A DNA stretch of 64,000 nucleotides from Amycolatopsis solani. Its GTDB lineage: Bacteria; Actinomycetota; Actinomycetes; Mycobacteriales; Pseudonocardiaceae. The notes beneath the pieces were generated by a model. It saw only the letters and a program-made list of their open reading frames with translations. It did no database searches and had not been told where the DNA came from. The stretch spans positions 496,001-560,000 of the forward strand of contig NZ_JAWQJT010000003.1 in NCBI RefSeq assembly GCF_033441515.1, in the 5' to 3' direction. The stretch's first letter is position 1, and each line of letters starts with the position of its first letter. Positions 14,363-33,541 of this stretch are shown here, piece after piece. A program made the position numbers and the translations under genes.

Positions 14363-14436
14363 CGCAAGACCGAACGTTCTATCTCATCTCAGCATGGCCG
14401 CTGGGCCGCCCAGTGTCAAGACCGAACGTTCTATCC
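14363..14436 (-). promoter_or_regulatory. promoter with two type A operators 52 bp apart
   Basis: Two copies of AGACCGAACGTTCTATC. The GAACGTTC cores are 14372-14379 and 14424-14431, with centres exactly 52 bp apart. Between them, reading toward the membrane-protein gene, lies TTGACA (14419-14414), a 17-bp spacer, then CATGCT (14396-14391). One operator overlaps the -35 and the other lies just past the start point. This suits a repressor, most likely the TetR protein encoded at 28375-28968. Confidence 0.7.
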
Positions 14437-14447
14437 GAAGTCTTACG

Positions 14448-16736
14448 TCAGGCCCAGCGCCGGTAATCGTCGGCCGGCAGCGGGTGGTCCACCGGCACCA
14501 CGCGCGAGTTGACCGCGGTCAGGCACCCCGGGCAGAACAGCTGGCGGAACACGACTTCCGCGTCGACGTACTCGAGCGGGTCGTGCCAGATGTGCGGCCC
14601 CGCTTCGGTCGGCGCCGCGTCCCGGCGGGCCAGCGAAGCCACGTACGCGCCCCCTTCCAGGGGCCCGATCTCCGTTCCACAGTGGACGCACGCCACCGTT
14701 CCGCTCGCCAGGACCACCAGGTTGTCGTCGAGCCGGCGCACCTCCGCCAGGTCCGGGGTGCCGATCGGCTCGAGAGCGACACCCGGCGAACGACGGCGTC
14801 GCAGCTTCTCGCGCACCTCGCCGGTCGCGGTCACGTCCACCTCGCCGGCGCGGAGCACGACGCCGTAGACGTCCCGAGCGGCCTCGGCCGACACCCGTAC
14901 CTGCGCCACGTCGTCGCGGACGCTCTCCGGCGAACGCAGCAGCGGGTCGCCGTAGCCACCCCCGGCCTGCCAGTGCAGGTACAGCGCGTCACCCGGCCCG
15001 AGGTGCGACTCGCCCTCGCAGGGCAGCACCTCGATCTGCCCGCCCAGCTCGCCCAGGTCGGCGGGGATGGTGACGGCCTGGGCGAGCTGGGGTTCTCGGA
15101 CCCCGCGGACGACGAGGTCGAGCTGGGAGTTGCCGGGATAGCCCCCGGCCAGGCCGACGTTCTGGTTCGCGACCTTGCCGGTCCCGGAGACGACCAGCGA
15201 CAGGGTCCCCGTCTGGTCGGGGTGCTGGACGTAGCAGACCGAGCCGCTCATCCCGCCCCGCTGCCGCCCCGGCCCGCCGGAGTCGATCTGCTCACGGCGC
15301 CACAGGGCGACGAGCGGGTAGAGGTACTCGGTCATCTCGACGTCCGGCGCCCGCGCGGCGGGGATGATCAACCGGCCGCCGGTGTCGACGCCGTCGTGGT
15401 ACACCTGCGCGCCGTAGCCGCCCGCCATGACGTCGAAGATGGGCGACACGAACCCTTTGCCGCCCCCGCCGCGAACGTCCACACCGGACACCACGCAGAG
15501 GTCGGTGGTGCCGTTGCAGATGGATTGCACGTCGGTGCGGTGGTCCGGCTCGGCGTCCAGCATCTTGGCCAGCACCTCGGCGACGAGGTTGCCCGAACCC
15601 CAGGCCGGGCCGAAGGGTCCCTTGCCCACGGCGGCCGGGAAGGACGCGTTGGTGATGGTGTCCTCGTCGGTGATGATCTCGAAGCAGCGCATCAGCCCGC
15701 CCGCCGCCCACGGGATGTCCCCCGCCAGCAACGGAAGCATCGTGAACACGATCCCGGCCCGCAGCCCCGGATAAGGGCAGTTGATGATGCCGGTTTGCCC
15801 GGCGGTGCCGCGGAAGTCGAAGACGAGCTTGTCGGCTTCCTTCGTCATCGCGACCTTGATGGCGTGCAGGCCGCGGTCGCCGGTCTGCGACTGCTCCTGG
15901 TAGCCGACCGCGCTCCACGTCCCGTCAGGCAACGTCTCGAGCTTGGCGCGCAGCCGGCGTTCGGCGTCGTCCATCATCCGGCGCATCACGGACTTCACCG
16001 TGTCGGCGCCGTACTTGGTGATGAGCCGCAGGATCTGCTCGGCGGCGTTCTTGTTGGCGGCGATCTTGGCGCGCAGGTCGAGGCCCACCAGGTGCGGCAA
16101 CCGCGAGCGGCGGACCCAGGCTTCGGCGACGTCGCGCTGCAGCACACCGCCGCGGACGACCTTCATCGGCGGCGTCGGGACGGCCTCGCCGAAGACGTCC
16201 TGCGCGGACGGGCTGAACGAGCCCGGCCGCGGCCCGCCGAGGTCGACCTGGTGCGCGATCGCCGTCGTCCAGCCGAACAGCCGGCCGTCGTGGAAGATCG
16301 GCGCCAGGATCGCGGCGTCGTTCTGGTGCAGCCCGCCGCCGATCCACGGGTCGTTGCACAGGAACATGTCGCCCTCGGCGATGCCGGGGTTGTCGCTGCG
16401 GTTGCGCAACGTCCACGTGATGGCCAGGTCCATCGAGCCGATCAGGCCGATGTTGTACGTGCCGACCTGGACCTGCTCGCCGAGCTCGTCGCAGATGGAG
16501 AAGTTGAAGTCGTTGGACTCGGTGACGACGTGCGAGCCGGACATCCGCCTCAGCGTCTCCCCCATCTCCTGGGTGATCGCCCACAGCCGGTGCCGGACGA
16601 CCTCGTAGGTCAGCGCGTCGACGTCGGCGTCGCCGTTCTGTTGCAGGGGCAGGGAAGGCGAGATCTGCCGCAGCAGTTCTTCGCGCGGCATGGGGCGGCT
16701 GGTGAACTCGTCCGCGCCGGGGATTTTCGAAGTCAT
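14448..16736 (-). CDS. HyuB-type subunit with fused acetone carboxylase gamma-like zinc domain
   Basis: A 762-aa protein. Residues about 25-640 are the hydantoinase B/oxoprolinase domain (YEVVRHRLWAITQEMGETLRRMS, FLCNDPWIGGGLHQND, GGGGKGF, GGYPGN). The last 110 residues carry two CxxC motifs, CVHC and CPGC, in a DPLEYVDAEVVFRQLFCPGC context like the zinc-binding gamma subunit of acetone carboxylase. Plain HyuB proteins lack this tail. That argues for an ATP-dependent carboxylase of a ketone or aromatic ketone, as in acetone and acetophenone carboxylases, rather than a hydantoinase. GAGGAAACC precedes the ATG, 7 nt after hyuA. Confidence 0.88.
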   Translation of the reverse strand: MTSKIPGADEFTSRPMPREELLRQISPSLPLQQNGDADVDALTYEVVRHRLWAITQEMGETLRRMSGSHVVTESNDFNFSICDELGEQVQVGTYNIGLIGSMDLAITWTLRNRSDNPGIAEGDMFLCNDPWIGGGLHQNDAAILAPIFHDGRLFGWTTAIAHQVDLGGPRPGSFSPSAQDVFGEAVPTPPMKVVRGGVLQRDVAEAWVRRSRLPHLVGLDLRAKIAANKNAAEQILRLITKYGADTVKSVMRRMMDDAERRLRAKLETLPDGTWSAVGYQEQSQTGDRGLHAIKVAMTKEADKLVFDFRGTAGQTGIINCPYPGLRAGIVFTMLPLLAGDIPWAAGGLMRCFEIITDEDTITNASFPAAVGKGPFGPAWGSGNLVAEVLAKMLDAEPDHRTDVQSICNGTTDLCVVSGVDVRGGGGKGFVSPIFDVMAGGYGAQVYHDGVDTGGRLIIPAARAPDVEMTEYLYPLVALWRREQIDSGGPGRQRGGMSGSVCYVQHPDQTGTLSLVVSGTGKVANQNVGLAGGYPGNSQLDLVVRGVREPQLAQAVTIPADLGELGGQIEVLPCEGESHLGPGDALYLHWQAGGGYGDPLLRSPESVRDDVAQVRVSAEAARDVYGVVLRAGEVDVTATGEVREKLRRRRSPGVALEPIGTPDLAEVRRLDDNLVVLASGTVACVHCGTEIGPLEGGAYVASLARRDAAPTEAGPHIWHDPLEYVDAEVVFRQLFCPGCLTAVNSRVVPVDHPLPADDYRRWA

Positions 16737-16743
16737 GGTTTCC

Positions 16744-18846
16744 TCACTGGTAGCGCAGCACGAGGTTGCCGAGGTGGTCGACGCGGCCGGTGACCCCGGC
16801 CGGGACCACGACCACCGTGGTCGGGACGTCCACAATGGCCGGTCCGACGAGTTCGTGGCCCGCGCGCAGCCGCGCGTAGTCGTAGACGGGAGTCAGCACG
16901 TAGCCGGTCTGCGAGTCGAGGCAGACCGAGCGTTCGCCGAGCAGGGCCTCCCGCGGATCGGGGCCGTCGGCGGGCGGGACCTCCGGCAGCGCGATCGGGA
17001 AGCCGAGACCGGCCTTGGCCCGCATGCGGTAGGTGATCGCCTGCACGCCGGCTTCGCGGTAACCGGCGCCACTGCCGTTGATGCGCTCGTACTGCTCCTC
17101 GAAGCGCTCGAGGATCTCGTCGCCGGTGCGCTCGGTGAACTGCGCGTCGGGGACGGCCGTGGCGAGCTCGGTGACCTGCATCGAGTACCGCAGGTCGATC
17201 TCGCGGTGCAGCGACACGTCGTGGAACTTCACCTTCTGCCGGTCGAGCGCGCGCTGCAGGTCGGCTTCCAGCCGGGCGAAGTGGGACTCGAGCACGCTGT
17301 GGTCGACCGGGAACGACGACGGGTCGGACAGTTCCGCGCTCAGCGCGACGTCGGAGGCCGCGAGCCCGTACGCCGAGAAGGCGGAGGCGACCGGCCCGAG
17401 CGGCACGACGACCTCGCTGACGCCGAGGTCCTGGCAGTACCCGGCGCAGTGCGCGGGTCCCGCTCCCCCGAAGGCGTAGGCGACGAAGTCCCGTGGGTCG
17501 TAGCCGGCCTGCACGACCGACCGGCGCAGGAGGTCGCCCGCCTGCGCGTTCTGCACCTCGTGGATGGCGATGGCGGCTTCCTCGACGGTGAGGCCGAGCG
17601 GTTCGGCGACGTGCTCGCGGATCGCCTCCCGCGCCAGGTCCAGCCGCAGCGGCTTGCGGCCGCCGAGCAGCCCGCGTTCGCTGAGGATGCCGAGCACGAG
17701 GTTGGCGTCGGTGTTGGTCGGCCGGGTCCCGCCGTTGCCGTAGCAGGCCGGGCCGGGGACGGCTTCGGCGCTCTGCGGGCCGAGCCGCAGGTTGCCGCCT
17801 TCGTCGACGGACGCGAGCGCACCGCCGCCGGAGCCGATGGTGTGCACGCGGATCGTCGCCGCGTTGATCGGGAACTGGTTCACGATCGAGCCGGGCGCCA
17901 TCACCGGCTCGCCGTCGACGATCAGCCCCGCGAGGAACGTCGTCCCGCCGACGTCGGTGGTGATCACGTTGCGGTGCCCCAGTTGTTCGGCCAGGCGCAT
18001 CCCGCCGATCACCCCGCCGGACAGCACGGACCCCACCGTGGTGATGGCGTGCTCGGGGGCCCGGTCGGCGGTGATGGTGCCGCCTTCGCTCTGCATGACC
18101 AGCAGCGGCCCCTTGAGCCCGCCCTCCTCCAGCTGCTTCTGCAGCGGCACCAGGTAAGTGCGCAGCCGCGGACCGACCTGGGCGTTCATGATCGTCGTGG
18201 ACGTCCGCGCGAATTCGCGGATGCGCGGACTGACCTCCGAGGACAGCGTGACGTACATGTCGGGCGCGATCTCGTGGATCAGCTCGCGGACGCGCTGCTC
18301 GTGGCCACCGTTCTTGAACGACCACAGCAGGCAGACGGCGATCGCCTCGACGCCTTGGTCCACAAGAGACTGAGCGACCCGGCGCACCTCGTCTTCGTCG
18401 AGGGGCACCAGGACCTTCCCGGCGTGGTCGATGCGCTCGGTGACTTCGAGGGCCCGGTACTTCGGGATCAGCGGCGCGGGCTTGCGCTGCCGGAGTGTGT
18501 CCTGGATTTCGTGGGCCGAGCGGCCGAGGGTGCGGCCTTCGGCGTTCATGATGTAGATCGCGTCCCGGTGCCCCTTGGTGGCGATCAGCCCGACGTCGGC
18601 GACCTGGCCCTGCACCAGTGCGTTGATCGACGCGGTCGTGCCGTGGGCGATGTAGTCGGTCTGCGAGAGCAGCTCGCCGACGCCGATGCCGAGTTCGGCG
18701 GCGAGGTCCTCGATCGCGCGCATGACCCCGACCTCGCGGTTCGGCGGGGTCGTCGGCGTCTTGGCCGACACGATCCGCCCGGCGCCGTCGGAGGCGACCG
18801 CGTCGGTGAACGTGCCGCCGACGTCGATGCCCAGTGCGTATGGCAT
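16744..18846 (-). CDS. HyuA-type (hydantoinase A/oxoprolinase/acetone carboxylase beta-like) subunit
   Basis: A 700-aa protein of the ASKHA ATPase fold. The N-terminal phosphate loop is GIDVGGTFTDAV; the C-terminal domain has TTDVGGTTFLAG, IGSGGGALA and AYAFGGAGPAH. With HyuB it forms the ATP-using half of 5-oxoprolinase, N-methylhydantoinase and acetone/acetophenone carboxylase complexes. AGGAGAAACGCA precedes the ATG. It lies 20 nt downstream of the FAD hydroxylase in the 22.6-14.4 kb operon, which also holds a transporter and a meta-cleavage-type hydrolase, so it should act on an aromatic or aromatic-derived substrate (inferred). Confidence 0.9.
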   Translation of the reverse strand: MPYALGIDVGGTFTDAVASDGAGRIVSAKTPTTPPNREVGVMRAIEDLAAELGIGVGELLSQTDYIAHGTTASINALVQGQVADVGLIATKGHRDAIYIMNAEGRTLGRSAHEIQDTLRQRKPAPLIPKYRALEVTERIDHAGKVLVPLDEDEVRRVAQSLVDQGVEAIAVCLLWSFKNGGHEQRVRELIHEIAPDMYVTLSSEVSPRIREFARTSTTIMNAQVGPRLRTYLVPLQKQLEEGGLKGPLLVMQSEGGTITADRAPEHAITTVGSVLSGGVIGGMRLAEQLGHRNVITTDVGGTTFLAGLIVDGEPVMAPGSIVNQFPINAATIRVHTIGSGGGALASVDEGGNLRLGPQSAEAVPGPACYGNGGTRPTNTDANLVLGILSERGLLGGRKPLRLDLAREAIREHVAEPLGLTVEEAAIAIHEVQNAQAGDLLRRSVVQAGYDPRDFVAYAFGGAGPAHCAGYCQDLGVSEVVVPLGPVASAFSAYGLAASDVALSAELSDPSSFPVDHSVLESHFARLEADLQRALDRQKVKFHDVSLHREIDLRYSMQVTELATAVPDAQFTERTGDEILERFEEQYERINGSGAGYREAGVQAITYRMRAKAGLGFPIALPEVPPADGPDPREALLGERSVCLDSQTGYVLTPVYDYARLRAGHELVGPAIVDVPTTVVVVPAGVTGRVDHLGNLVLRYQ

Positions 18847-18866
18847 TGCGTTTCTCCTGGTGGTGG

Positions 18867-23540: not shown

Positions 23541-26500
23541 CTAGTCGGGCTGGATCCACGACACCTGGATCAACTGCTTGCCGTTCTTCCGGGTCAGCAG
23601 ATTCCCCCGCCCCGGCGGCATCGCCGACGGCTTGATGTTGCCGACCAGCGCACCCTCATCACGCGAACCGTTCATCACCATGCCCGGCGCCGCGATCTCC
23701 TTCAACTTCCCGATGATCGGGTCATACATCGCCTTGCTCGCACCACCCGTGCGGCGCACCACCACCAGGTGCAGACCCACATCCTTGGCCTGCGGGAGGA
23801 AGTCGGAGATCTTCCGCAGCGGGTTGGCCGTCGAGGTGGCGACCAGGTCGTAGTCATCGACCAGGATGAACAACTCCGGGCCCTTCCACCACGACCGCGT
23901 CTTCAACTGCTCCTGCGTCACATCCGGACCCGGCAACCGCCGCGTCATCGAATTGAAGACGTCCCCGACCATGCTCTCCAGCTGGTTCGCCGACACCGCA
24001 TACCCCAACAGCGCGTCACCTTGGACGAAACCGAGCATCGTGCGCCGGTAGTCCACCAGCAGGATCAACGCCTCCGAGGAGGTGTAGCGCTCCGAAATAC
24101 CGCGGGCGATCTGCCGCAGCAGGTTCGTCTTGCCGGATTCGCCGTCGGCGAAGGCGTAGAAGTGCGGCTCGGCGTTGAAGTCCAGGTAGATCGGCTGCAG
24201 GTCTTCCTCGTTGACTCCGATCGGGACCAGCTTCGACTCCCGCGCCGTGTCGAGCTTGAGGACCTCCTCGTAGGTGATCATCTCCGGCAGCAGCCGCACC
24301 TGCGGCGCCACCCGGCCCCGCCACGCACCCTTGATCTTGCCCACCGCGTCCGCCACCCCGGCGGCGATGGTTTCGGGGTCGCTGGAGCCGTCGATGCGCG
24401 GGAGACCGCCGAGCATGTGCAGCTTCTCCCGGGTCAGGCCGCGGCCTGGGCGTCCGGCCGGGATGTTCACCGCGACCCGGCGGTCGATGTCGGACTCGGT
24501 CGGGTCACCGAGGCGCAGTTCGAACCGGGTGCCCAGCATGTCCTTGATCGCCGGGCGGATGTCGGCCCACCGGTTCGCCGCCACGATCACGTGCACGCCG
24601 TAGGAGAGGCCCTGGGTGGCCAGGCGGGTGATCGTGGTTTCCAGCTCTTCGAAGTCATCGCGCAGGGCGCGCCAGTTGTCCACGACCAGGAACGCGTCGC
24701 CGAACGGGTCCTGGTCCGGGCGGATCTCCCCGCGGCGTTTGCGGTTGCGGAACTCGGTCATCGAGTCGATGCCCATCGCCCCGAACCGGCCCTCCCGCTC
24801 GGTCAGCAGCGTGGTCAGCTCGGCCACGATCCGGCGGGCCTTGTCCGGCTCCCGCCGGGCGACGGCGACGCCGCCGACGTGGGGCAGGTCGGCGAGGCCG
24901 GTCAGGGTGCCGCCACCGAGGTCCAGGCAGTAGAACTGCGCCTCCTCCGGCGTGTGGGTCAGGGCCATCGACATGATCAGCGTCCGCAGCATCGTCGACT
25001 TCCCCGACTGCGGACCCCCCACGATCACCCCGTGCCCGGACGCCCCGGAAAAGTCCGCCCAGAGCGGGTCACGGCGCTGCTCGTATGGCCGGTCGATGAT
25101 GCCGAGGGGCACCTGCAGGCGGCCGTTGCCGAAAAACCCGACCGGGGACAGACCCCGGTCGTCGGTGGGGTTGAGGTTGGGCAGCAGCGTGTCCAGGGAG
25201 TTGGGGTCCTTCAGCGGCGGCAGCCACACCTCGTGCGCCGGCGGGCCTTGGCCCACCAGCCGCGACACGATCACATCCAGCTCCGAAGGCTCCACCGCCT
25301 CCTCCGACTGCGGCGCCGCCGCGACCGGGGTTTCGATCAGCTCCGGCTCCTTCGGCAGCTCCACGAAGTCCGGCACGAACAACTGCGGGCGTTTGTCCGC
25401 CCGCACCACCGTCGCCGCCGGCCCGGCCGCTTTCAGCCCGGCCGGGCGGTACGGGCCCGACACATAGGAAGCCTTGAACCGCACCAACGTGGACGTGTCG
25501 AACTTCAAATACCCACCCCCGGGCACCGACGGGAGTTCGAACGCGTCCGGCACCCCGATCGCCGCCCGCGACTCCGCCGCCGAGAACGTCTTCAACCCGA
25601 TGCGGTAGGACAGGTGCGAGTCCAGACCACGCAGCTTGCCTTCCTCCAGCCGCTGGGAGGCCAGCAGCATGTGCATCTGCAGCGACCGGCCCAGCCGGCC
25701 GATCGCGACGAACAGGTCGATGAAGTCCGGTTTCGCCGAGAGCAGCTCGGAAAACTCGTCACACACGATGAACAACGCGGGCAGCGGGTCGAGATCAGCG
25801 CCGTTCTCGCGGGCTTTCTCGTACTCCCAGACGTTTTTGAAGTTGCCGCCGTTCTTCAACGCTTCCTGACGGCGGTTCATCTCCCCCGCCAGCGCGTCCT
25901 TCATCCGGTCGACCAGCGTGACCTCATCGGCGAGGTTGGTGATCACCGCCGACACGTGCGGAGCCTTGTCCAAACCGAGGAACGTCGCACCACCCTTGAA
26001 GTCCACCAGAACGAAATTCAACGTGCTGGAGGAGTGCGTGGCCAGCATGCCGAGCACCAGGGTGCGCAGGAACTCCGACTTACCCGACCCGGTCGCGCCG
26101 ATGCACAGCCCGTGCGGGCCCATGCCTTCGGCGGCGGCTTCCTTGATGTCCAGCTCGACCGGCTGGCCGTATTCCCCGACACCGAAGGGGACGCGGTAGC
26201 GGTCACGGATCGGGCGGGGCCGCCACGCCTGCTGCACGTCGAAGGTCATCGGGTCACCCGGGATGCCCAGCAGCTCCAGCAACGACGGGTTGGACAACAG
26301 CGGCTCTTCCTCGCCGACGTCCTGGCCACCTGAACCACCCAGGCGATACGGGGAAATCCGCCGGGCCAGCGTTTCCGCTTCCACGACGCTCAACGTGTCC
26401 GGGCGGCCGAACCACTCGACGCCGCCGGCGCTGCGCGCCCCCATCCGATCCGCCTCGACCACCAGCCGGAGGCCGCGCCGGGAAGCCAGGTTGCCGATCG

Positions 26501-27545
26501 ACTCCGACAGGTCGATCAGCGTCACCCCGACCAGTCCCTCTTCGAGGATGATCTGCTCTTCGCGGGTGACCTCGGCGTCGTCGAGGACGATCACCACGTG
26601 CGGCTCATCCTGCGCCGGGGTGGCGTTGCGGGAGAAGCGCTGCCGGTCACGGAGTTCTTCGTCGAGCCAATCCTCGATCTGCGCCAAGGAACCGGCCATC
26701 ATCCGCATCGGCCCGATACCGTCGGCCAACGTCGGGTGCTGGGCGTGCGGCAGCCACTTCGCCCACTCCCACTCCCCCTTGGCGCGCCCGGCGGTCGCCA
26801 CCGCGATCAGCACGTCTTCCGGGCTGTGGAAGGAAACGATCTGCGCGAGCATCGCGCGGGTCAGGCCCCGAGTCAGTTCCAGGTCCCCTTGCAGGCACAC
26901 CGCGGCGAAGCCCCGCAACGCGATCTGGGTGGGAAGGTCGGGCACGATCGAGTGCGCCTGGACGAACCGGCGCAACGCCAGGGTCGAGATCGGCTCCAGC
27001 TCGTCCACCGGGCCCGTCTGCGGCGGCACGAGCCGCGTGGCCAGCCGGTGCGAACTCCGTCCCACGCGCAGGTGCAGGAAGTCCTGGTCGTTCTGGCGGC
27101 GCTCCCACATCCGGCGGCTGGCCGCGAGCGACCACAGCGACTGCGGATCCGGATGCACCCACTCCAGGGCAGCGCGCTGGTCGACCATCGCCTCACGCGC
27201 GCGGTCACGCATCTGCCCGAGGTAGCGCAGGTAGTCCTTGCGGTCTTCGTCCATCTCGGCGCGCTTGGCCCCGCCGCCCTTGCCGCCGCCGCTCGCCATC
27301 ATCCCGAGGGTGCCGAGGACCGTGGTGGCGCCCAGGGCGATCGTCAGCGGGTTGCGCTGGCTCGACTGGAACAAGAACACCAGCAACCCCAGCGACGCCA
27401 CGATCATCACGACCGGCAGCGCTTTCAGCACGATGTTCCCGGGAATGACCCGCGGCACCTCCGGCGGCGGCTCGAGGTGGACTTCACCACCCGGCGGCCG
27501 CGGCGCCGCCAATCGGGGCGACCGCTTGAACTGGAGAGTGCTCAT
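23541..27545 (-). CDS. eccC: type VII secretion FtsK/SpoIIIE ATPase EccC (fused)
   Basis: A 1334-aa protein equal to mycobacterial EccCa plus EccCb in one chain. Two N-terminal TM helices (about residues 39-61 and 66-84) precede three FtsK-like ATPase domains with P-loops GATGSGKS (about 483), GGPQSGKST (about 845) and ADGESGKTN (about 1133). ATPase 1 has Walker B FIVCDEFSE; ATPase 2 has VVDNW, which looks degenerate. It powers export of WXG100 substrates through an ESX membrane complex. No eccB, eccD, eccE, mycP or WXG100 gene is in the window, so it is an orphan here. The ATG overlaps the stop of an ohr remnant. Confidence 0.93.
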   Translation of the reverse strand: MSTLQFKRSPRLAAPRPPGGEVHLEPPPEVPRVIPGNIVLKALPVVMIVASLGLLVFLFQSSQRNPLTIALGATTVLGTLGMMASGGGKGGGAKRAEMDEDRKDYLRYLGQMRDRAREAMVDQRAALEWVHPDPQSLWSLAASRRMWERRQNDQDFLHLRVGRSSHRLATRLVPPQTGPVDELEPISTLALRRFVQAHSIVPDLPTQIALRGFAAVCLQGDLELTRGLTRAMLAQIVSFHSPEDVLIAVATAGRAKGEWEWAKWLPHAQHPTLADGIGPMRMMAGSLAQIEDWLDEELRDRQRFSRNATPAQDEPHVVIVLDDAEVTREEQIILEEGLVGVTLIDLSESIGNLASRRGLRLVVEADRMGARSAGGVEWFGRPDTLSVVEAETLARRISPYRLGGSGGQDVGEEEPLLSNPSLLELLGIPGDPMTFDVQQAWRPRPIRDRYRVPFGVGEYGQPVELDIKEAAAEGMGPHGLCIGATGSGKSEFLRTLVLGMLATHSSSTLNFVLVDFKGGATFLGLDKAPHVSAVITNLADEVTLVDRMKDALAGEMNRRQEALKNGGNFKNVWEYEKARENGADLDPLPALFIVCDEFSELLSAKPDFIDLFVAIGRLGRSLQMHMLLASQRLEEGKLRGLDSHLSYRIGLKTFSAAESRAAIGVPDAFELPSVPGGGYLKFDTSTLVRFKASYVSGPYRPAGLKAAGPAATVVRADKRPQLFVPDFVELPKEPELIETPVAAAPQSEEAVEPSELDVIVSRLVGQGPPAHEVWLPPLKDPNSLDTLLPNLNPTDDRGLSPVGFFGNGRLQVPLGIIDRPYEQRRDPLWADFSGASGHGVIVGGPQSGKSTMLRTLIMSMALTHTPEEAQFYCLDLGGGTLTGLADLPHVGGVAVARREPDKARRIVAELTTLLTEREGRFGAMGIDSMTEFRNRKRRGEIRPDQDPFGDAFLVVDNWRALRDDFEELETTITRLATQGLSYGVHVIVAANRWADIRPAIKDMLGTRFELRLGDPTESDIDRRVAVNIPAGRPGRGLTREKLHMLGGLPRIDGSSDPETIAAGVADAVGKIKGAWRGRVAPQVRLLPEMITYEEVLKLDTARESKLVPIGVNEEDLQPIYLDFNAEPHFYAFADGESGKTNLLRQIARGISERYTSSEALILLVDYRRTMLGFVQGDALLGYAVSANQLESMVGDVFNSMTRRLPGPDVTQEQLKTRSWWKGPELFILVDDYDLVATSTANPLRKISDFLPQAKDVGLHLVVVRRTGGASKAMYDPIIGKLKEIAAPGMVMNGSRDEGALVGNIKPSAMPPGRGNLLTRKNGKQLIQVSWIQPD

Positions 27546-27655
27546 CGAAACCTTTCACCGACCCGGACGGTGACCGACACAGGGACGTTGCCGCGCGTCG
27601 CGACGGAACAGGGGCAGGTGGCATGGGCCGCCATCGCCGGCTCTTCGGCGCGGCC
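27542..27655 (-). pseudogene. 3' remnant of an ohr/OsmC gene
   Basis: Between the small membrane protein gene and eccC an open frame ends in AHATCPCSVATRGNVPVSV. It matches the C-terminus of the intact Ohr at 33010-33438 (AHAICPYSNATRGNIPVTV) at 14 of 19 residues, including the second catalytic Cys region. Only about 37 codons remain; there is no start and no N-terminal half with the first Cys. The DNA also matches (GTTGCCGCGCGTCGCG in both). It is a decayed duplicate left beside the duplicated membrane-protein gene. Confidence 0.72.
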
Positions 27656-27673
27656 CGCGGTCCGGCCGTCGCG

Positions 27674-28240
27674 TCAGACGGTTCCGGCGCTGAGGCCGGC
27701 CTTCCTCGCGGCAGTGCCGAGCCGAAGGGCCGAAACGAGGAAGAAGATGCCACCGAGCACGGCGTAGCCGCCGATGGTGACGAGCGAAGCCCCGTCGCGC
27801 CCGGCCTGCAGGATGAACGACGTCCCGGCGACGACCGAAAGGGCGCCGCTGAGGATCATCGGCCACTGGCCGCCGAGCCCGCGGCGGCTGATCCCGACCG
27901 CGAGCTGCACCAGGCCCGAGACGACGGCCCAGCTCCCCCACACGCGGAGGACGCCGGGGATGCCGGACGCCGCCGCGACGGCCACCCCGGCCGCGGCCAG
28001 CAAGCTGACCGCCACGTTGACGTACAGCGCCAGCACCGAGCCGGTCGCCTTGGCCGCCCGCGCGTCGACGATCGCCGCGGCGACGTCGAACAGCGGGTAG
28101 AGCACCAGCAGCGTGACCGCCGCCGGGCCGAGGTCCGACGCGGTGGCGATCAGCAGCGCGGCCCAGACGAGGGCGAAGGCGAAACGGGTGAAGTACAGCC
28201 GCCGCAGCGACGGTGCGAGGGCACTGGGGGCGGTACTCAC
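27674..28240 (-). CDS. DUF308/HdeD-like membrane protein (copy 2)
   Basis: A 188-aa multi-pass protein (LRRLYFTRFAFALVW, YPLFDVAAAIVDARAAK, GGQWPMILSG), paralogue of the 13790-14353 product. I start at the GTG at 28240, which has AAGGAG 7 nt upstream and gives the same length as its paralogue; longer readings would run into the operator. The promoter has one type A and one type B operator. Function is unknown; shared control with Ohr and catabolic genes suggests membrane stress linked to the pathway substrate. Confidence 0.85.
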   Translation of the reverse strand: MSTAPSALAPSLRRLYFTRFAFALVWAALLIATASDLGPAAVTLLVLYPLFDVAAAIVDARAAKATGSVLALYVNVAVSLLAAAGVAVAAASGIPGVLRVWGSWAVVSGLVQLAVGISRRGLGGQWPMILSGALSVVAGTSFILQAGRDGASLVTIGGYAVLGGIFFLVSALRLGTAARKAGLSAGTV

Positions 28241-28291
28241 GGAGGTCTCCTTCGGTGGACGGGGCCGCCGACGCGGAACCCGGGTCACTCC

Positions 28292-28363
28292 TTGTATGGA
28301 GCGATCAGTACACAACCCACCGTAGCCAAGAGTGCGGCTCTCGTCAAGACCGAACGTTCTACC
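28292..28363 (-). promoter_or_regulatory. promoter with one type A and one type B operator, 52 bp apart
   Basis: Type A core GAACGTTC at 28352-28359 (AGACCGAACGTTCTACC) and a type B site at 28292-28315 (inner ATGGAGCGATCAGTAC). Their centres are 28355.5 and 28303.5, again 52 bp apart. Between them on the minus strand are TTGACG (28347-28342), a 17-bp spacer and TACGGT (28324-28319). The B site covers the start point, where the 14.4 and 33.5 kb promoters have a second A site. Confidence 0.7.
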
Positions 28364-28374
28364 TCAGAGCGAGG

Positions 28375-28968
28375 TCACTTCCCCGCGGCGGCGAGGCGGT
28401 GTTCCAGGATCCCGTCGACGCCCTGGCGGAACGTGTCGCAGACTTCGGCGGGCTCCGACAGGCAGCCCGCCGCCATCGCGCCGTCGCGCAGCATCACGAA
28501 GTGCCGCCCCGCGGGTTCCGCCGGAGTGTCACCCACCTGCGCGAGCAGCTCGGTGACCGTGCGGAGGAACCACTCGCGATGCGAGAGGACGGCCTGATGC
28601 ACGGGATGGGCGGGGTCCGGGTACTCCGCCACCGCGTTGAGGAAGGCGCAGCCCCGGAAGTGGGCCGACCCGATGCCGTCGGCGATCGACTTGGCGATCG
28701 CCCGCAGGCCGTCGGCCGCCGGCAGACCACCGGCGACGACCTTGTCGATCCCTTCGCGCTCCATCTCGTGGACACCCTCGAGGTAGGCGACGACGAGGTC
28801 GTCCTTGCTGGGGAAGTGCCGGTACAGCGTGGCGCGGGTGACCTTGGCCTCCGCGACGATCCGGTCGATCCCCACGGAGTGCAGACCCTCGGCGTAGAAG
28901 ATCCGCGTGGCCGTCGCGAGCAGCCTCGACCGCGCTTCCGACACCTGACCTCGAGCGTTGAGCACCAT
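28375..28968 (-). CDS. TetR family regulator (candidate type A repressor)
   Basis: A 197-aa TetR protein: N-terminal HTH (VGIDRIVAEAKVTRATLYRHFPSKDDLV, residues about 32-59) and a ligand domain with the FRGCAFLNAVAEYPDP block seen in a common actinobacterial TetR subgroup. A type A site lies about 17 nt upstream of its start (28983-29002) and others flank it on both sides, so autoregulation and control of the type A set is the simplest model. No clear Shine-Dalgarno precedes the ATG; the mRNA may be leaderless. Ligand unknown. Confidence 0.9.
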   Translation of the reverse strand: MVLNARGQVSEARSRLLATATRIFYAEGLHSVGIDRIVAEAKVTRATLYRHFPSKDDLVVAYLEGVHEMEREGIDKVVAGGLPAADGLRAIAKSIADGIGSAHFRGCAFLNAVAEYPDPAHPVHQAVLSHREWFLRTVTELLAQVGDTPAEPAGRHFVMLRDGAMAAGCLSEPAEVCDTFRQGVDGILEHRLAAAGK

Positions 28969-28982
28969 GGTGCAAGTTTAGC

Positions 28983-29002
28983 AGATAGAACGATCGGTAT
29001 CA
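28983..29002 (-). promoter_or_regulatory. type A operator upstream of tetR
   Basis: GATAGAACGATCGGTATC, a type A site with one core change (GAACGATC, 28988-28995). It lies immediately upstream of the TetR gene and 80 bp centre-to-centre from the next A site at 29068-29075. It fits autoregulation of that gene. Confidence 0.6.
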
Positions 29003-29037
29003 CTACACCAAGTCACCCTGACACTCGATCGAACGCG

Positions 29038-29080
29038 CGTTAGAGTGAACGCTACATTCAAAGAGGAGAACGTTCGGTAC
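29038..29080 (+). promoter_or_regulatory. adjacent type B and type A operators before the FAD oxidase
   Basis: A type B site at 29038-29061 (on the minus strand, inner ATGTAGCGTTCACTCT) abuts a type A site whose core GAACGTTC is 29068-29075. Within B, TAGAGT (29041-29046) with CTGACA 17 bp upstream is a plausible promoter for the FAD oxidase at 29106. The A site then lies in the early transcribed region. Confidence 0.65.
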
Positions 29081-29105
29081 TCCCCTGCCTCGACGAAGGA
29101 CACCC

Positions 29106-30467
29106 ATGCCCCACACCCGCGACCACGCCCGTTCCCTCGCCGACGCCCACCGCGCACTGCGCACCGCCGTGCCGGACGGCCAAGTGCACTCGGCCGGCCC
29201 GGGATACGCCGACAGCATCGCCTTGTGGAACGGCGCCGTGGAACACCGGCCCGCCCTCGTGCTGACCTGCACCACCACCGCCGACGTCGTGCTCGGGGTG
29301 CGGACCGCCCGCGAGTTCGGCCTGCCGCTCTCCGTCCGCTCCCGCGGCCACGACTGGGCCGGGCGCGCACTGACCGACGGGGGCCTGACCCTGGACGTGC
29401 GGCCCTTGAACAGCGTCCGGGTCGACCCCGCCACCCGGTCCGCCGAGGTCGGCGGCGGCGCGTCCGCCAACCACCTGCTGGCCGCGGCCGGCGAGCACGG
29501 CCTCGTGGGCGCGACCGGCACCATCGGCACGGTCGGGGTCGCCGGGCTCACCCTGGGCGGCGGCTACGGACCGCTGGCCGGGCGGATCGGCCTCGCCGCC
29601 GACAACCTGCTGGCCGCCGAAGTCGTCACGGCCGACGGCTCGGTCGTGCACACGGACGCCCGGCACGACCCGGACCTGCTGTGGGCCCTGCGCGGCGGCG
29701 GGGGCAACTTCGGCGTCGTCACATCGATGACCGTCCGCCTGCACGCCGTGCCGGCGGTGGTGACCGGACTCGTGCTCTACCCCTGGCACCAGGCCGGGCC
29801 GGTGCTGGCGCGGGTGTGCGAGGCGCAGCACGAGGCGCCCGACGACCTGACGATCCAGACCGGCGTGATCGCCGCACCGGACGGTTCGCCCGCGCTGCTC
29901 GTGCTGCCGACCTGGGCCGGCGACGTCGTCACCGGCGAAGACCCGTCGGGGCCGGTGACGGCGCTGACCCGCCTCGGCGACCCCCTGCTCGCCCAGCTGG
30001 ACACCGTTCCCCTCGCGACCGCGATCGCCGGGCGCGACGCGATGTTCCCCGACGGCAGGCACGTCACCATCCGGACCCGCTCGGTGCCCGGGCTCGACGA
30101 GGGCGTCACCGACGTCGTCGAGCGGTTCGGCGGCCGGCTCCCGACGCCGCAGTCCGGGATCAGCCTGCACCACTTCCACGGCGCCGCGGCGCGGGTCGCC
30201 GCCGCCGACACCGCGTTCGGCCTCCGCCGGCCGCACCTGATGGCCGAGATCCTCGGCATCGGGCAGGACACCGGCGGCTGGGCGGACGAGGCGTCTGCCG
30301 CACTGGCCGGGCACGCTTTCCCCGGCGGGTACGCCAACCTGCTCGGCCCGGACGCGACCGACCAGATCCCTCACGCTTACGGCGACAACCTGCCGCGGCT
30401 GCGGCGCGTCAAGGCCACTGTCGACCCCGACGGCGTCTTCTCCGCGACGCCGTTGCCGATGAGCTGA
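29106..30467 (+). CDS. FAD-linked oxidase, berberine-bridge-enzyme-like
   Basis: A 453-aa flavoprotein with FAD_binding_4 (PCMH) and a C-terminal BBE motif. RSRGHDWAGRAL contains the His that is covalently linked to FAD in this family, and GTVGVAGLTLGGGYG replaces the motif that would hold a second Cys link, so monocovalent FAD is expected. The C-terminus YGDNLPRLRRVKATVDPDGVF is the BBE signature. It oxidises alcohols, sugars or phenolic ring systems with O2. No signal peptide. GAAGGA precedes the ATG. Its promoter carries both operator types, tying it to the aromatic genes. Confidence 0.9.
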   Translation: MPHTRDHARSLADAHRALRTAVPDGQVHSAGPGYADSIALWNGAVEHRPALVLTCTTTADVVLGVRTAREFGLPLSVRSRGHDWAGRALTDGGLTLDVRPLNSVRVDPATRSAEVGGGASANHLLAAAGEHGLVGATGTIGTVGVAGLTLGGGYGPLAGRIGLAADNLLAAEVVTADGSVVHTDARHDPDLLWALRGGGGNFGVVTSMTVRLHAVPAVVTGLVLYPWHQAGPVLARVCEAQHEAPDDLTIQTGVIAAPDGSPALLVLPTWAGDVVTGEDPSGPVTALTRLGDPLLAQLDTVPLATAIAGRDAMFPDGRHVTIRTRSVPGLDEGVTDVVERFGGRLPTPQSGISLHHFHGAAARVAAADTAFGLRRPHLMAEILGIGQDTGGWADEASAALAGHAFPGGYANLLGPDATDQIPHAYGDNLPRLRRVKATVDPDGVFSATPLPMS

Positions 30468-30472
30468 CCGCA

Positions 30473-30506
30473 CCTGGTCAGGAGGCGCTCCAGCCTCCTG
30501 ACCAGG
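30473..30506. terminator. bidirectional terminator hairpin
   Basis: A perfect 14-bp stem, CCTGGTCAGGAGGC / GCCTCCTGACCAGG, with a 6-nt loop between the convergent FAD oxidase and dioxygenase genes. Confidence 0.8.
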
Positions 30507-30512
30507 ACCGGC

Positions 30513-31388
30513 TCACGACTTCGGCGCGGCGAACGGGTTGGCGTCCGCGTGGTGGTGCCCCCACTCGTCCGAGCGCCCGAAGTCGTGCGGCACCCAGTCG
30601 TCGCCGACGTCGATGCCGCCGCAGCCGATCTCCAGGTGGAAGCCGCTGGGGTTGCGGACGTAGAAGGAGATCGCCTTGTCGTTCATGTGCCGGCCGAGGC
30701 TGATCGAGATCGGCACGGCGTTGGCCTGGGCCCGGTCGTAGGCCCGCCCGACGTCGTCGATCGAGCCGTGTTCGAGCTCCAGGTGGTGGATCGACGCGGT
30801 TTCGGCGTTCGCGAGCGCGATGCTGTGGTGGGTCCGGTTGCAGCGGAAGAAGAACAGGCCGGGCGCGCGGTAGTCGGTCAGCTTGAATTCGAGCACCGAC
30901 TCGTAGAGTTCGCGCAGTTCCTCGAGCTTGGGGCTGGCGAGCACGAAGTGCCCCAAGCCCGTGATACCGGACCCGCCCGCCGGCCGCTCGGCGCCGAGGC
31001 GCACCTTGGCTTCGCCGACCGCCAGCTCCACGCGGTAGCCGACCGGGTCGGTGAACCAGCGCAGCTGCGTGGCACCGCGCAGTTCCCTCTCCTCGGCTGT
31101 GCCCTCCGCGACGGCGAACCCGGCGTCGGTGAGCCGCCGGGTCAGCCGGTCGAGCTCGCGGGATGAGTCGACGATCCAGCCCAGCTCGCGCGGACGGTCC
31201 TCAGTGGACGGATGAAGGGCGAGGCGGTACTTGAACTCGTCGAGCTCGGCGAGGACGATCTCGTCCGTGCCGGACTTGGCGTGGGTGACGCCGACGCCCA
31301 GCGTGCGCACGAGCAGGTCGGTCCACGCGTCGACGTCGGTGACGTCGAGACCGACGTACCCCAGCTTCCTGATTCCCACGGGTGTCAT
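30513..31388 (-). CDS. extradiol ring-cleavage dioxygenase (type I, VOC fold)
   Basis: A 291-aa two-domain vicinal oxygen chelate protein like BphC/HsaC 2,3-dihydroxybiphenyl dioxygenases. Predicted Fe(II) ligands are His in GLGHFVLAS, His in SIHHLELE and Glu in FHLEIGCGG; the block GRHMNDKAISFYVRNPSG is typical. It cleaves a catechol next to its hydroxyls. The ATG overlaps the stop of the upstream meta-cleavage hydrolase gene, so the two consecutive reactions are co-translated. The real substrate is probably produced by the FAD hydroxylase encoded at 18.9-20.4 kb. Confidence 0.92.
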   Translation of the reverse strand: MTPVGIRKLGYVGLDVTDVDAWTDLLVRTLGVGVTHAKSGTDEIVLAELDEFKYRLALHPSTEDRPRELGWIVDSSRELDRLTRRLTDAGFAVAEGTAEERELRGATQLRWFTDPVGYRVELAVGEAKVRLGAERPAGGSGITGLGHFVLASPKLEELRELYESVLEFKLTDYRAPGLFFFRCNRTHHSIALANAETASIHHLELEHGSIDDVGRAYDRAQANAVPISISLGRHMNDKAISFYVRNPSGFHLEIGCGGIDVGDDWVPHDFGRSDEWGHHHADANPFAAPKS

Positions 31389-32200
31389 CCCTCCGCCGCG
31401 GCGGCCGCGCCGCCCTGCAGGAACTCGCGGACGATGTGGTTGAACTCGGGCGCGCGCTCGTACTGGACCCAGTGCCGGCAGTGCGGCAGCACCCGCAGTT
31501 CGGCGTTCGGGATGCCGTCGAGGATCTTGGCCGCCCAGGCCAGCGGCACGGTCTGGTCCTCCCGGCCCCACACGAGCAGCGTGGGGGCGGCGATGCGGCC
31601 CAGGTCGGGGGTCAGGTCGCCGAAGTTCGGCGGGATCGGCAGCTCGGGGTGCGCGCGCAGGCTCGACTCGTAGCGCTCGTCGATGAGGGCCTCGGTCGCC
31701 AGCGACTCGTCGTAGACCATCAGGCGCACGAACTCGGCCATCGCTTCGCGCGACGGCTTTTCCGCGGCCATGTAACCGAAAAGGTGTTCGAGGCCGGCGG
31801 GCCAGGGCGGCGCGTCGGCCGGCAGGACCCCGCCCGGCGCCATGAGCACGAGCCGGTCCACGCGATCCGGGTACCGCATGGCGATCCGCATGGCCACGGC
31901 GCCGCCGTAGGAGTTGCCGACCAGGTGGGCCCGCTCGATCCCGAGCGCCGTCATCGCGCGGCACACGCGCTCGGCGGCGTGGAAGATCAGCGGCTCGTCC
32001 GCCTCGGGCCGCGGGGACGCACCCCAGCCCGGCAGGTCGACCACGATGTTGCGGTGGTCGGCGAAGGCGGGCAGGTTGCCGCCGAAGTTGCTCATCCCGG
32101 TGGCGCCCGGCCCCGATCCGTGCAGCCACACGACCGGGCTGCCCGAACCGGCCTCGGTGTAGGCCAGGCGCGCGTCACCGACATCCAGAGTGCTCGTCAC
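31385..32200 (-). CDS. alpha/beta hydrolase, meta-cleavage product hydrolase
   Basis: A 271-aa MhpC/BphD/HsaD-like C-C hydrolase: WLHGSGPGATGMSNF oxyanion region, nucleophile elbow GNSYGG, Asp in GREDQTVPL and His in HCRHWVQYERAPEF. It would hydrolyse the 2-hydroxy-6-oxo-dienoate made by the dioxygenase it is coupled to. GTG start about 25 nt from the predicted transcription start; the promoter contains the best type B operator in the window. A second hydrolase of this kind is encoded at 20441. Confidence 0.9.
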   Translation of the reverse strand: MTSTLDVGDARLAYTEAGSGSPVVWLHGSGPGATGMSNFGGNLPAFADHRNIVVDLPGWGASPRPEADEPLIFHAAERVCRAMTALGIERAHLVGNSYGGAVAMRIAMRYPDRVDRLVLMAPGGVLPADAPPWPAGLEHLFGYMAAEKPSREAMAEFVRLMVYDESLATEALIDERYESSLRAHPELPIPPNFGDLTPDLGRIAAPTLLVWGREDQTVPLAWAAKILDGIPNAELRVLPHCRHWVQYERAPEFNHIVREFLQGGAAAAAEG

Positions 32201-32216
32201 TGTGCCACCCTATTCG

Positions 32217-32259
32217 TTGTATGTAGCGCTCACTATACAACGGGCAGCGGTGTTATCAA
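32217..32259 (-). promoter_or_regulatory. best type B operator with embedded promoter
   Basis: The 24-bp site at 32217-32240 has half sites TTGTATGTAGCG and CTCACTATACAA. On the gene strand TTGATA (32259-32254) lies 16 bp before TATAGT (32237-32232), the latter inside the operator. This is the clearest promoter-operator overlap of the set and controls the hydrolase/dioxygenase pair. Confidence 0.72.
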
Positions 32260-32287
32260 GGCCGTCCGGACGTCGATCGGCCCGCGG

Positions 32288-32926
32288 TCAGCGCTTGCGC
32301 TTCGGCGCCCGCTGCTCCGCCAGGCCCCGGATCAGGGCGACGAACGGGGCGACCTGCGAGCGGTAGCTCATGCCGTCGAAGCTGTTGGTCACCGAAAGCC
32401 CGTCCGTCAAAGCCCGCCCGAGGACGGCGAGCTCCTGGACGAGGGCTTCGTTGTTCTTGCCACCGTTCGGGGCGAAGATCGGGGTGAGCGCGGCGACCCA
32501 GGAAGCGTGCGCGTAGTCGCGGATGCGGCGCACGGTCGCCCGCACCGCCTCGGCGTCCTTCTGCGGGCCGACGCTGATGGCGACGAGCAGCTGCAGGTAG
32601 TCCGGGCGGCGGTCGAGGGAATCACAGGCCGCGGAGAACCACGCTTCGAGGCGGTCGAGCGGCGCCCGTTCGTCGAAGGACGACGGGTTCGGGAACAACG
32701 CGTGCAGCTCGTCGAAAGTCCGCTCCAGCAGCGCCGCCAGGACGCCGAGCTTGTTGCCGAAGTGGTAGTAGATCGAGCTCGGCGGCAGCCCGGATTGGGC
32801 ACTCAGGTCCGAAATCGCCATGCCGTCGTAGCCTTTTTCCCCGACGAGGGCGCGAGCCGCGTCGAGGATGACCTCCTGGCTGCTCAAGCCGGCGGCCGTC
32901 GGTACGGAGCTGGAATCCCTCGCCAT
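32288..32926 (-). CDS. TetR family regulator (candidate type B repressor)
   Basis: A 212-aa TetR protein with HTH MAISDLSAQSGLPPSSIYYHFGNKLGVL (about residues 38-65) and a C-terminal ligand domain (DGLSVTNSFDG). It lies directly upstream of the dioxygenase operon on the same strand, with a type B operator in the gap, so regulation of the type B set is the simplest guess. No type B site is seen in its own upstream region. I start at the ATG at 32926; longer upstream readings are not TetR-like. Confidence 0.88.
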   Translation of the reverse strand: MARDSSSVPTAAGLSSQEVILDAARALVGEKGYDGMAISDLSAQSGLPPSSIYYHFGNKLGVLAALLERTFDELHALFPNPSSFDERAPLDRLEAWFSAACDSLDRRPDYLQLLVAISVGPQKDAEAVRATVRRIRDYAHASWVAALTPIFAPNGGKNNEALVQELAVLGRALTDGLSVTNSFDGMSYRSQVAPFVALIRGLAEQRAPKRKR

Positions 32927-33009
32927 GCGGCCATGATAGGTCCGCACCGGGGCCGCTCCCCACCGGGCGCGCCGGGCCGGGGAGTCTTCGCCGGCCCGGC
33001 CGCCCCGGC

Positions 33010-33438
33010 TCAGGCGACGGTCGCGTCGACGGTCACCGGGATGTTGCCGCGCGTCGCGTTCGAGTACGGGCAGATCGCGTGGGCGCCTTCGACGAGCTGG
33101 TCGGCGGTCGCCTGGTCCACACCGGACAGTTCGGCGTGCAGCGCCGCGCTGAGGGTGAAGCCGCCTTCGTCCGTCGAGTGCACCTGCACCTCCGCGACGA
33201 CGGCGGAGTCGGTGACCCTCACCTTCCGCTGCGCCGCGACGGCCTTCAGCGCCGAGTGGAAGCACGACGCCCAGCCGGCCGCGAACAGCTGCTCCGGGTT
33301 GGTCGCACCGCCGGGGCCGCCCATCTCCTTGGGGATGGCCAGGGAGAGGTCGAGCAGGCCGTCGTCGGTCCGCGCCTGGCCCCCCGCGCGCCCGTCGCCG
33401 GTCGAGGTGGCGATGCCGAGGTACAGAGGCTTGGTCAT
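33010..33438 (-). CDS. ohr: organic hydroperoxide resistance protein, Ohr/OsmC family
   Basis: A 142-aa Ohr-type peroxidase. The two catalytic Cys are in GWASCFHSAL (about residue 60) and AHAICPYSNATRGN (about residue 124); the Arg/Glu partners fit LG-P-TNPEQLFAAG. It reduces organic and fatty-acid hydroperoxides with lipoyl-dependent or other thiols. GAAGGGA precedes the ATG. It is controlled by two type A operators in the same 52-bp layout as the copy-1 membrane protein. Many Ohr genes use OhrR (MarR); none is adjacent, so TetR control would be unusual. Confidence 0.93.
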   Translation of the reverse strand: MTKPLYLGIATSTGDGRAGGQARTDDGLLDLSLAIPKEMGGPGGATNPEQLFAAGWASCFHSALKAVAAQRKVRVTDSAVVAEVQVHSTDEGGFTLSAALHAELSGVDQATADQLVEGAHAICPYSNATRGNIPVTVDATVA

Positions 33439-33470
33439 GGCGGGAATCCCTTCACGATCGCGGACCAGTC

Positions 33471-33541
33471 CGCGATACCGAACGTTCTATCCTGTTCACT
33501 ATGGACCGCCGGGTCGCGCCAAGTCAAGACCGAACGTTCTA
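33471..33541 (-). promoter_or_regulatory. ohr promoter with two type A operators 52 bp apart
   Basis: GAACGTTC cores at 33480-33487 and 33532-33539, centres exactly 52 bp apart. Minus-strand TTGACT (33527-33522) and CCATAG (33504-33499) lie between with a 17-bp spacer. This is the same geometry as at 14.4 kb. The distal A site also lies immediately upstream of the divergent SDR promoter. Confidence 0.72.

What the first reader, a model, noticed from the sequence alone, without database searches (positions are those of the whole stretch)
14363..33541. Three promoters share two operators spaced exactly 52 bp apart
The GAACGTTC-core sites at 14375.5/14427.5 (small membrane protein) and 33483.5/33535.5 (ohr) are both 52 bp apart, five helical turns, flanking a -35 with a near-17-bp spacer to the -10. 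At 28.3 kb the partners are a type A and a type B site, again 52 bp apart. Identical spacing at unlinked promoters suggests cooperative dimer-dimer binding or a repression loop by a TetR protein.
Basis: partly seen in the sequence, partly recalled or inferred. Interest (0 to 1): 0.85.

Follow-up and report, generated by a model that had tools for sequence, protein, structure and literature searches.

The report
Twin repressor sites bracket stress promoters
A repressor protein of soil actinobacteria probably shuts its target genes by sitting on two DNA sites, one at each end of the promoter, and the near-constant distance between the sites follows from the size of the promoter rather than from a DNA loop.

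Summary
The motif is real and specific: ACCGAACGTTCTA occurs exactly five times in the 10.3-Mb genome, all in this window. Two promoters (a DUF308-like membrane-protein gene beside a disulfide-reductase gene; ohr) carry two sites exactly 52 bp apart. The third pair is 53 bp apart by matched centres, and its partner is a different motif.

The local TetR (28375-28968) is very probably the binder. By one rule, a site lies just upstream in 79 of 80 orthologs from many actinobacterial genera and 25 of 30 from the genus set, against 24 of 2959 background stretches by a slightly stricter rule.

Over 101 twin promoters the spacing runs 47-62 bp, with 52 the mode (35 of 101). One site abuts a -35-like box (TTGAC in 96 of 101); the other starts 6-8 bp after the -10 in 70 of 101. 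Spacing tracks that gap (r = 0.98), with no compensation by the spacer; half-turn-off spacings (10) outnumber full-turn-off ones (1). So 52 bp most likely reflects promoter geometry and occlusion at both ends, not a loop or helical phasing; cooperativity is untested. Two cysteines invariant in 80 of 80 orthologs, with targets such as ohr, suggest thiol-stress sensing, which is inferred.

The parts
14368..14383 (-). Downstream operator (op2) of the DUF308-like/reductase promoter, GATAGAACGTTCGGTC
   Evidence: exact consensus
14391..14396 (-). -10 box CATGCT, 17-bp spacer to the -35 and 7 bp before op2
   Evidence: sequence; assignment by script
14414..14419 (-). -35 box TTGACA, directly abutting op1
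   Evidence: sequence
14420..14435 (-). Upstream operator (op1), GATAGAACGTTCGGTC
   Evidence: exact consensus
13790..14353 (-). DUF308-like hydrophobic membrane protein, 187 aa (target)
   Evidence: Pfam DUF308 22 bits, below its 25-bit cutoff; hydropathy
12382..13788 (-). Pyridine nucleotide-disulfide oxidoreductase, 468 aa, abutting the DUF308-like gene (same operon inferred)
   Evidence: Pfam Pyr_redox_2 and Pyr_redox_dim; close same-strand follower of a DUF308-like gene in 17 of the 18 relative loci in which it was found (of 80 searched)
28293..28312 (-). Type B palindrome in the op2 position of the second DUF308-like promoter (A-B spacing 53)
28319..28324 (-). -10 box TACGGT of the second DUF308-like promoter
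   Evidence: sequence, assigned by eye
28342..28347 (-). -35 box TTGACG abutting op1
   Evidence: sequence, assigned by eye
28348..28363 (-). op1 of the second DUF308-like promoter, GGTAGAACGTTCGGTC
   Evidence: 1 mismatch
27674..28240 (-). Second DUF308-like membrane protein (paralog of 13790-14353)
   Evidence: 64% identity by tblastn; Pfam DUF308 17 bits, below cutoff
28375..28968 (-). TetR-family repressor, 197 aa; Cys107 and Cys169 invariant in 80 of 80 orthologs
   Evidence: Pfam TetR_N 2.4e-15; PDB 3g7r E=6.5e-77; Cys counts
28984..28999 (+). Operator in the TetR gene's own promoter region, GATAGAACGATCGGTA
   Evidence: 2 mismatches; sites at similar positions in most orthologs
29064..29079 (+). 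Operator AGGAGAACGTTCGGTA upstream of the FAD/BBE oxidase gene
   Evidence: 4 mismatches, intact GAACGTTC core
29106..30467 (+). FAD-binding (BBE) oxidase gene, divergent from TetR (candidate target)
   Evidence: Pfam FAD_binding_4, BBE
33476..33491 (-). op2 of the ohr promoter, GATAGAACGTTCGGTA
   Evidence: 1 mismatch
33498..33503 (-). -10 box CATAGT of ohr, 18-bp spacer to the -35 and 6 bp before op2
33522..33527 (-). -35 box TTGACT of ohr abutting op1
33528..33543 (-). op1 of the ohr promoter, GATAGAACGTTCGGTC; also lies upstream of the divergent SDR gene
   Evidence: exact consensus
33010..33438 (-). Ohr-family peroxiredoxin (target)
   Evidence: NCBIfam TIGR03561 166.2 bits, above its 88.85 cutoff
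33589..34539 (+). SDR oxidoreductase divergent from ohr (possible shared target)
   Evidence: NCBIfam NF004846 (PRK06197.1) 332.8 bits, above its 268 cutoff

Best explanation
The GAACGTTC sites are operators of the local TetR repressor. At its main targets two dimers sit at the two ends of one promoter: op1 abuts the -35 box, and op2 starts about 7 bp after the -10, at the expected transcription start. Either dimer can block RNA polymerase, and together they give tight repression by occlusion. The 52-bp spacing is the length of a -35/17-18 bp/-10 promoter plus these two offsets; it is conserved because promoter geometry is conserved. Signal release is most likely through modification of the invariant Cys107/Cys169, or a ligand, during thiol, peroxide or electrophile stress, which turns on the DUF308-like protein, the disulfide reductase and Ohr. 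Shown here by sequence: motif specificity, TetR linkage, bracketing and the spacing distribution. Inferred: binding, repression, occlusion and the signal.
For: The exact 13-mer is confined to this window in the genome. A site lies upstream of the TetR in 79 of 80 named loci and 25 of 30 genus loci; background stretches 24 of 2959, and 78 pairs spaced 45-62 bp against 0 in the reversed-sequence control. In the 60 genus genomes, ten match the strict pair pattern, nine of them with operator-type pairs, and all nine hold a TetR ortholog of 75% identity or more. Of 103 pairs spaced 45-62 bp, 101 have a -35-like box directly abutting an operator (TTGAC in 96); the gap from -10 to op2 is 7 bp in 44 and 6-8 bp in 70 of 101. 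First genes after the 101: 79 DUF308-like, 6 ohr, 2 disulfide reductase, 2 TetR (both with a box on either side, so direction ambiguous), 12 unclassified. Spacing-gap correlation 0.98, spacer-gap correlation 0.17. Cys107 and Cys169 in 80 of 80.
Against: No binding, footprint or transcription data. Five of the 30 genus TetR loci (L055, L056, L057, L059, L062) and one of the 80 named ones (L151) lack a site upstream of the TetR itself by this rule; four of the five have sites on the other side of the gene, and L057 has none in its 3.6 kb, although its genome has a pair elsewhere. The 80 named loci are the best 80 of more than 500, so they favour close orthologs. Of the 18 genomes with an ortholog of 75% or more, nine gave no strict pair; looser rules find 47-, 51- or 53-bp pairs in several. 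A related TetR family (45% identical in this genome) has similar sites upstream in all 15 loci fetched from other genomes, so cross-binding is possible. At 2 mismatches the 16-mer is found in 79 of 80 genus genomes, many hits unrelated to this TetR (list cut off). In the close clade 19 of 29 spacings are exactly 52, and four 18-bp-spacer promoters have a 6-bp gap, a hint of compensation that is not significant (Fisher P = 0.19). The -10 caller allowed only 16-19 bp spacers, so the 17/18 result is partly built in. Orthologous promoters are not independent.
Confidence: 0.78

Rival explanations
1. Cooperative binding of two TetR dimers, aligned on one DNA face five helical turns apart, selects the 52-bp spacing.
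For: 52 is the mode (35 of 101); in the close clade 19 of 29 are exactly 52, and 17+7 and 18+6 layouts both give 52.
Against: Spacings of 47, 55, 56, 57 and 58 are used before DUF308-like genes in relatives. Ten half-turn-off against one full-turn-off. No spacer-gap compensation overall. At 52 bp centre to centre, two dimers on 16-18 bp sites leave about 35 bp of DNA between them, so direct contact needs bending or a linker (inference).
Confidence: 0.15
2. A repression loop between the two operators.
For: Two near-identical sites around one promoter.
Against: 52 bp is a very stiff segment to close into a loop, and a TetR dimer has one DNA-binding face (general knowledge). No sign of phasing.
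Confidence: 0.03
3. The sites belong to another, related regulator (the 45% identical TetR elsewhere in this genome), or are shared by both.
For: All 15 paralog loci fetched from other genomes have at least one site within 4 mismatches of the same consensus, and the recognition-helix segment TRATxYRH is almost the same (T44 in 14 of 15).
Against: The exact sites cluster beside this TetR, and the nine genus genomes with operator-type pairs all hold its close ortholog. Paralog sites have a GAACGATC or GAACGGTC core in 14 of 15 loci, GAACGTTC in one.
Confidence: 0.12

Closest known systems
TetR/tetA of tetracycline resistance
   Same: Dimeric repressor, two palindromic operators in a control region, repression of the target and of its own gene (PMC3511530, passages seen).
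   Different: Here the twin operators bracket a single promoter about 52 bp apart, the controlled gene is usually a DUF308-like membrane protein, and the regulon extends to other promoters kilobases away.
SCO7222 and other streptomycete TetR repressors of divergent genes
   Same: Several operators per intergenic region; SCO7222 has three perfect TGGAACGNCGTTCCA repeats (PMC3511530, passages seen).
   Different: Different operator and target; bracketing geometry is not described in the passages seen.
NemR, AltR and DitR, thiol-sensing TetR repressors
   Same: TetR repressors whose repression is relieved through cysteine residues and that control stress genes (PMC13178969 and PMC9342713, passages seen).
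   Different: Operators differ (for AltR, CAATCTAC-N6-GTAGATTG); redox sensing by this protein is untested; its TetR_C_13 match is below cutoff (24.1 against 27). I made no sequence comparison with NemR, AltR or DitR.
PDB 3g7r, putative transcriptional regulator
   Same: Solved relative covering residues 9-189, E=6.5e-77, with the FRGC and AAGC cysteines kept.
   Different: No function given in the entry name; that it is the S. coelicolor protein SCO4454 is recalled, not from a call.

Membership tests
TetR-family repressor | TetR_N helix-turn-helix domain | tested here: met
   PF00440, 56.5 bits against cutoff 24
TetR-family repressor | Palindromic operator overlapping its own and target promoters | tested here: met
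   Site upstream in 79 of 80 and 25 of 30 loci; 101 bracketed promoters; by sequence only
TetR-family repressor | Represses transcription, released by ligand or modification | not testable with these tools
   no binding or expression data
NemR-type thiol-switch TetR | Conserved reactive cysteine(s) in the ligand domain | tested here: inconclusive
   Cys107 and Cys169 in 80 of 80 orthologs; paralogs keep Cys107 (15 of 15) but not Cys169 (0 of 15). Conservation is not reactivity
NemR-type thiol-switch TetR | C-terminal domain of a described TetR family | tested here: inconclusive
   TetR_C_13 24.1 bits, below its cutoff of 27; that NemR belongs to this Pfam family was not checked
Helically phased cooperative operator pair | Spacing restricted to whole helical turns | tested here: not met
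   47-62 bp, unimodal, half-turn-off 10, full-turn-off 1 of 101
DUF308 (HdeD-type) protein | PF03729 above gathering score | tested here: inconclusive
   22 bits (13790-14353) and 17 bits (27674-28240) against 25; one of four relatives scanned reaches 25.2
Ohr peroxiredoxin | TIGR03561 above cutoff | tested here: met
   166.2 bits against 88.85

The most novel reading that the evidence does not exclude
This is an uncharacterised, actinobacteria-wide thiol-stress regulon. A TetR repressor with two invariant cysteines (a possible intramolecular or mycothiol switch) clamps both ends of each promoter, and its ancestral target is a DUF308-like membrane protein, often with an adjacent disulfide reductase. 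In some Amycolatopsis the same twin-operator clamp was placed on ohr, and in this aromatic-type gene cluster it is interleaved with a second regulator's sites.
Probability: 0.35. Interest if true: 0.6.

Novelty: new member of a known kind. Interest (0 to 1): 0.42.

Why it matters
It assigns an operator, a regulator and a core target to a TetR subfamily, found in many actinobacterial genera, that has a solved but functionally unnamed relative. It also gives a DUF308-like membrane protein of unknown function a testable stress role. The set of 101 aligned promoters shows how to tell promoter-set spacing from true operator phasing, a common over-reading of equal spacings. I found no description in one open-access library: GAACGTTC with TetR (10 papers, 7 listed, unrelated by title), SCO4454 (none), DUF308 with TetR (11 listed, unrelated by title), 3G7R with TetR (none), Ohr/HdeD/TetR in actinobacteria (166 papers, 12 listed; passages of one, PMC5430705, seen without such a link). 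Papers outside that library, or below the listed rows, were not seen.

Tried and rejected
Helical phasing or a loop as the cause of 52 bp: rejected on the spacing distribution. Spacer-gap compensation: not significant (close clade P = 0.19; rest P = 0.09, opposite direction). Common origin of the ohr and DUF308-like promoters by duplication: the sequence between the fixed elements matches at 13 of 31 positions, shuffle P = 0.064, so undecided. A phylum-wide strict pattern found only 3 of 396 genomes (the own genome and two others), so it added little. The own-genome site C4:253552 (GGTAGAACGTTCTGTC, 2 mismatches) is a single site just after a -10, before an ORF, and gives no pair. C1:1106776 was read only as raw sequence and left. 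Pairs outside 45-62 bp (7 of 110: six at 33-41, one at 67) were left out of the promoter analysis, and two of the remaining 103 had no abutting box by the rule used (TTGAC, TTGAT, TTGCG or TTGCA). Two of the 101 were dropped where only well-scored -10 boxes were counted. One search's list was cut off after part of the 80 genomes, so it was used only for individual sites.
Full report
WHAT IS THERE. The window lies in a 10.28-Mb genome in 4 contigs. Its genus is Amycolatopsis: the same-genus genome G046 has a contig of 10,665,068 bases, the length of NZ_CP127173.1 of Amycolatopsis sp. 2-2, and the best named TetR match (93%) is Amycolatopsis eburnea. The GAACGTTC core occurs six times against 0.83 expected, and the 17-mer with up to 3 mismatches six times against 0.08. 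In the whole genome ACCGAACGTTCTA occurs exactly five times, all here; with 2 mismatches the 61 hits are hardly more than the reversed control's 50. Read on the minus strand, the DUF308-like promoter is op1-TTGACA-17-CATGCT-7-op2 and the ohr promoter is op1-TTGACT-18-CATAGT-6-op2; both have centres 52 bp apart. The second DUF308-like promoter at 28.3 kb has op1-TTGACG-17-TACGGT and a different palindrome (type B) in the op2 position, 53 bp away, as in the two orthologous promoters compared. The TetR/oxidase intergenic region holds two sites 80 bp apart, one near each gene.

WHOSE OPERATORS. The TetR at 28375-28968 (PF00440; PDB 3g7r relative, E=6.5e-77) was followed into 80 named loci of 63-93% identity, the best 80 of 519 confirmed candidates. 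79 of 80 carry a site from 300 bp upstream to 20 bp inside the start (core within 1 mismatch, whole within 4, or 5 if close). The same rule on the 30 genus loci finds 25 of 30; L055, L056, L057, L059 and L062 have none there, although all but L057 have a site on the far side of the gene. The two sets share some genomes. At 4 mismatches, 24 of 2959 stretches away from the TetR have a site (true second sites included), and the 80 loci hold 78 pairs spaced 45-62 bp against 0 in the reversed control. In 60 genus genomes the strict pair pattern hit 10; nine have operator-type pairs, and all nine hold a TetR ortholog of at least 75% identity, while the tenth (G024) and one of G038's two hits lack the motif flanks. 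Nine further genomes with such an ortholog had no strict pair. A paralog family (45% in this genome) has related sites upstream in 15 of 15 loci fetched from other genomes, 14 with GAACGATC/GAACGGTC cores and one with GAACGTTC, so cross-talk is possible.

WHY 52. The loci held at that point gave 110 distinct pairs 30-75 bp apart: six at 33-41 bp, 103 at 47-62 bp, one at 67 bp. Of the 103, 101 have a -35-like box abutting one operator; in 96 it begins TTGAC, in 5 TTGC; three have a box on both sides. Spacing of the 101 is unimodal: 47 (2), 50 (3), 51 (10), 52 (35), 53 (18), 54 (12), 55 (5), 56 (6), 57 (6), 58 (2), 59 (1), 62 (1). The gap from -10 to op2 is 7 bp in 44, 6 in 15, 8 in 11, with tails to 2 and 16. 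Spacing follows this gap (r = 0.98), while spacer and gap do not compensate (r = 0.17). Half-turn-off spacings (10) outnumber full-turn-off ones (1). So the constraint is on the position of each operator relative to the promoter, not on operator-to-operator phase. Caveats: the -10 caller allowed 16-19 bp spacers with a mild preference near 17.5; orthologous promoters are not independent; in the close clade 19 of 29 are exactly 52, so a weak preference for 52 is not excluded.

TARGETS AND LIKELY ROLE. First genes after the 101 twin promoters: DUF308-like 79, ohr 6 (spacings 52, 51, 52, 52, 52, 52), disulfide reductase 2, TetR 2 (direction ambiguous), unclassified 12. In the 80 named loci a DUF308-like gene was found in 70 and the reductase in 18, in 17 of which it closely follows a DUF308-like gene on the same strand; ohr was found in 6. 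Cys107 and Cys169 are invariant in 80 of 80 orthologs; the paralogs keep the first (15 of 15) but not the second (0 of 15). With Ohr and a disulfide reductase in the regulon, a thiol, peroxide or electrophile signal is the likeliest, by analogy to NemR, AltR and DitR (passages of PMC13178969 and PMC9342713). This is inference only.

THE TYPE B SITE. TATAGTGAGCGCTACATACA-like sites occur four times in the genome within 3 mismatches, all in this window, and a fifth, more divergent copy lies at 28295. They lie before an MFS transporter gene (22617), the hydrolase gene (32220), the oxidase (29044), the SDR (33556) and the second DUF308-like gene. Of 13 relative loci scanned, five have type B sites (L138, L140, L141, L080, L082; L140 and L082 are the same genome). 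Four of these five also hold the second TetR (32288-32926) and the hydrolase; L080 shows neither within its 19 kb at the thresholds used. Of the eight without type B, three were checked (L143, L145, L147) and hold neither gene. The second TetR is the best candidate for type B, untested. If so, three control regions here combine two regulators.

VERDICT. A real, well-conserved operator system of a known kind, with a new member and an interesting regulon; the exact-spacing argument for looping or phased cooperativity is not borne out.

Noticed in passing
window 22617, 28295, 29044, 32220, 33556: A second palindrome (type B, TATAGTGAGCGCTACATACA-like) is confined to this window in the genome at 3 mismatches and marks an aromatic-type gene cluster (MFS transporter, hydrolase, oxidase, SDR); the TetR at 32288-32926 is its likely binder.
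   Followed up: partly
L140 about 10606-10700; window 23541-27545: In Amycolatopsis sp. 2-2 a type A site and a weaker hybrid site (54 bp apart) sit directly before a 1336-aa ORF whose start matches the large ORF at 23541-27545 (looks like a type VII secretion EccC ATPase, by eye only); here a DUF308-like gene lies between.
   Followed up: no
G000:C2:2225965-2226492 and L226-L240: A paralogous TetR family with its own conserved sites, mostly GAACGATC/GAACGGTC, 77 bp apart in 10 of the 15 fetched loci, lacking Cys169.
   Followed up: partly
G000:C4:253552-253567: A single good operator just after a TTGACC-17-TACCTT promoter-like stretch before an ORF that resembles an acyl-CoA dehydrogenase-type flavoenzyme by eye.
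   Followed up: no
L170 about 9372: In Streptomyces plumbidurans a single operator lies upstream of an ohr gene (61% identical) next to the TetR, a possibly independent recruitment of ohr.
   Followed up: no
L055, L056, L057, L059, L062: Five genus orthologs of the TetR (75-80% identity) have no consensus operator at their own start, so autoregulation may have been lost or changed in some lineages.
   Followed up: no
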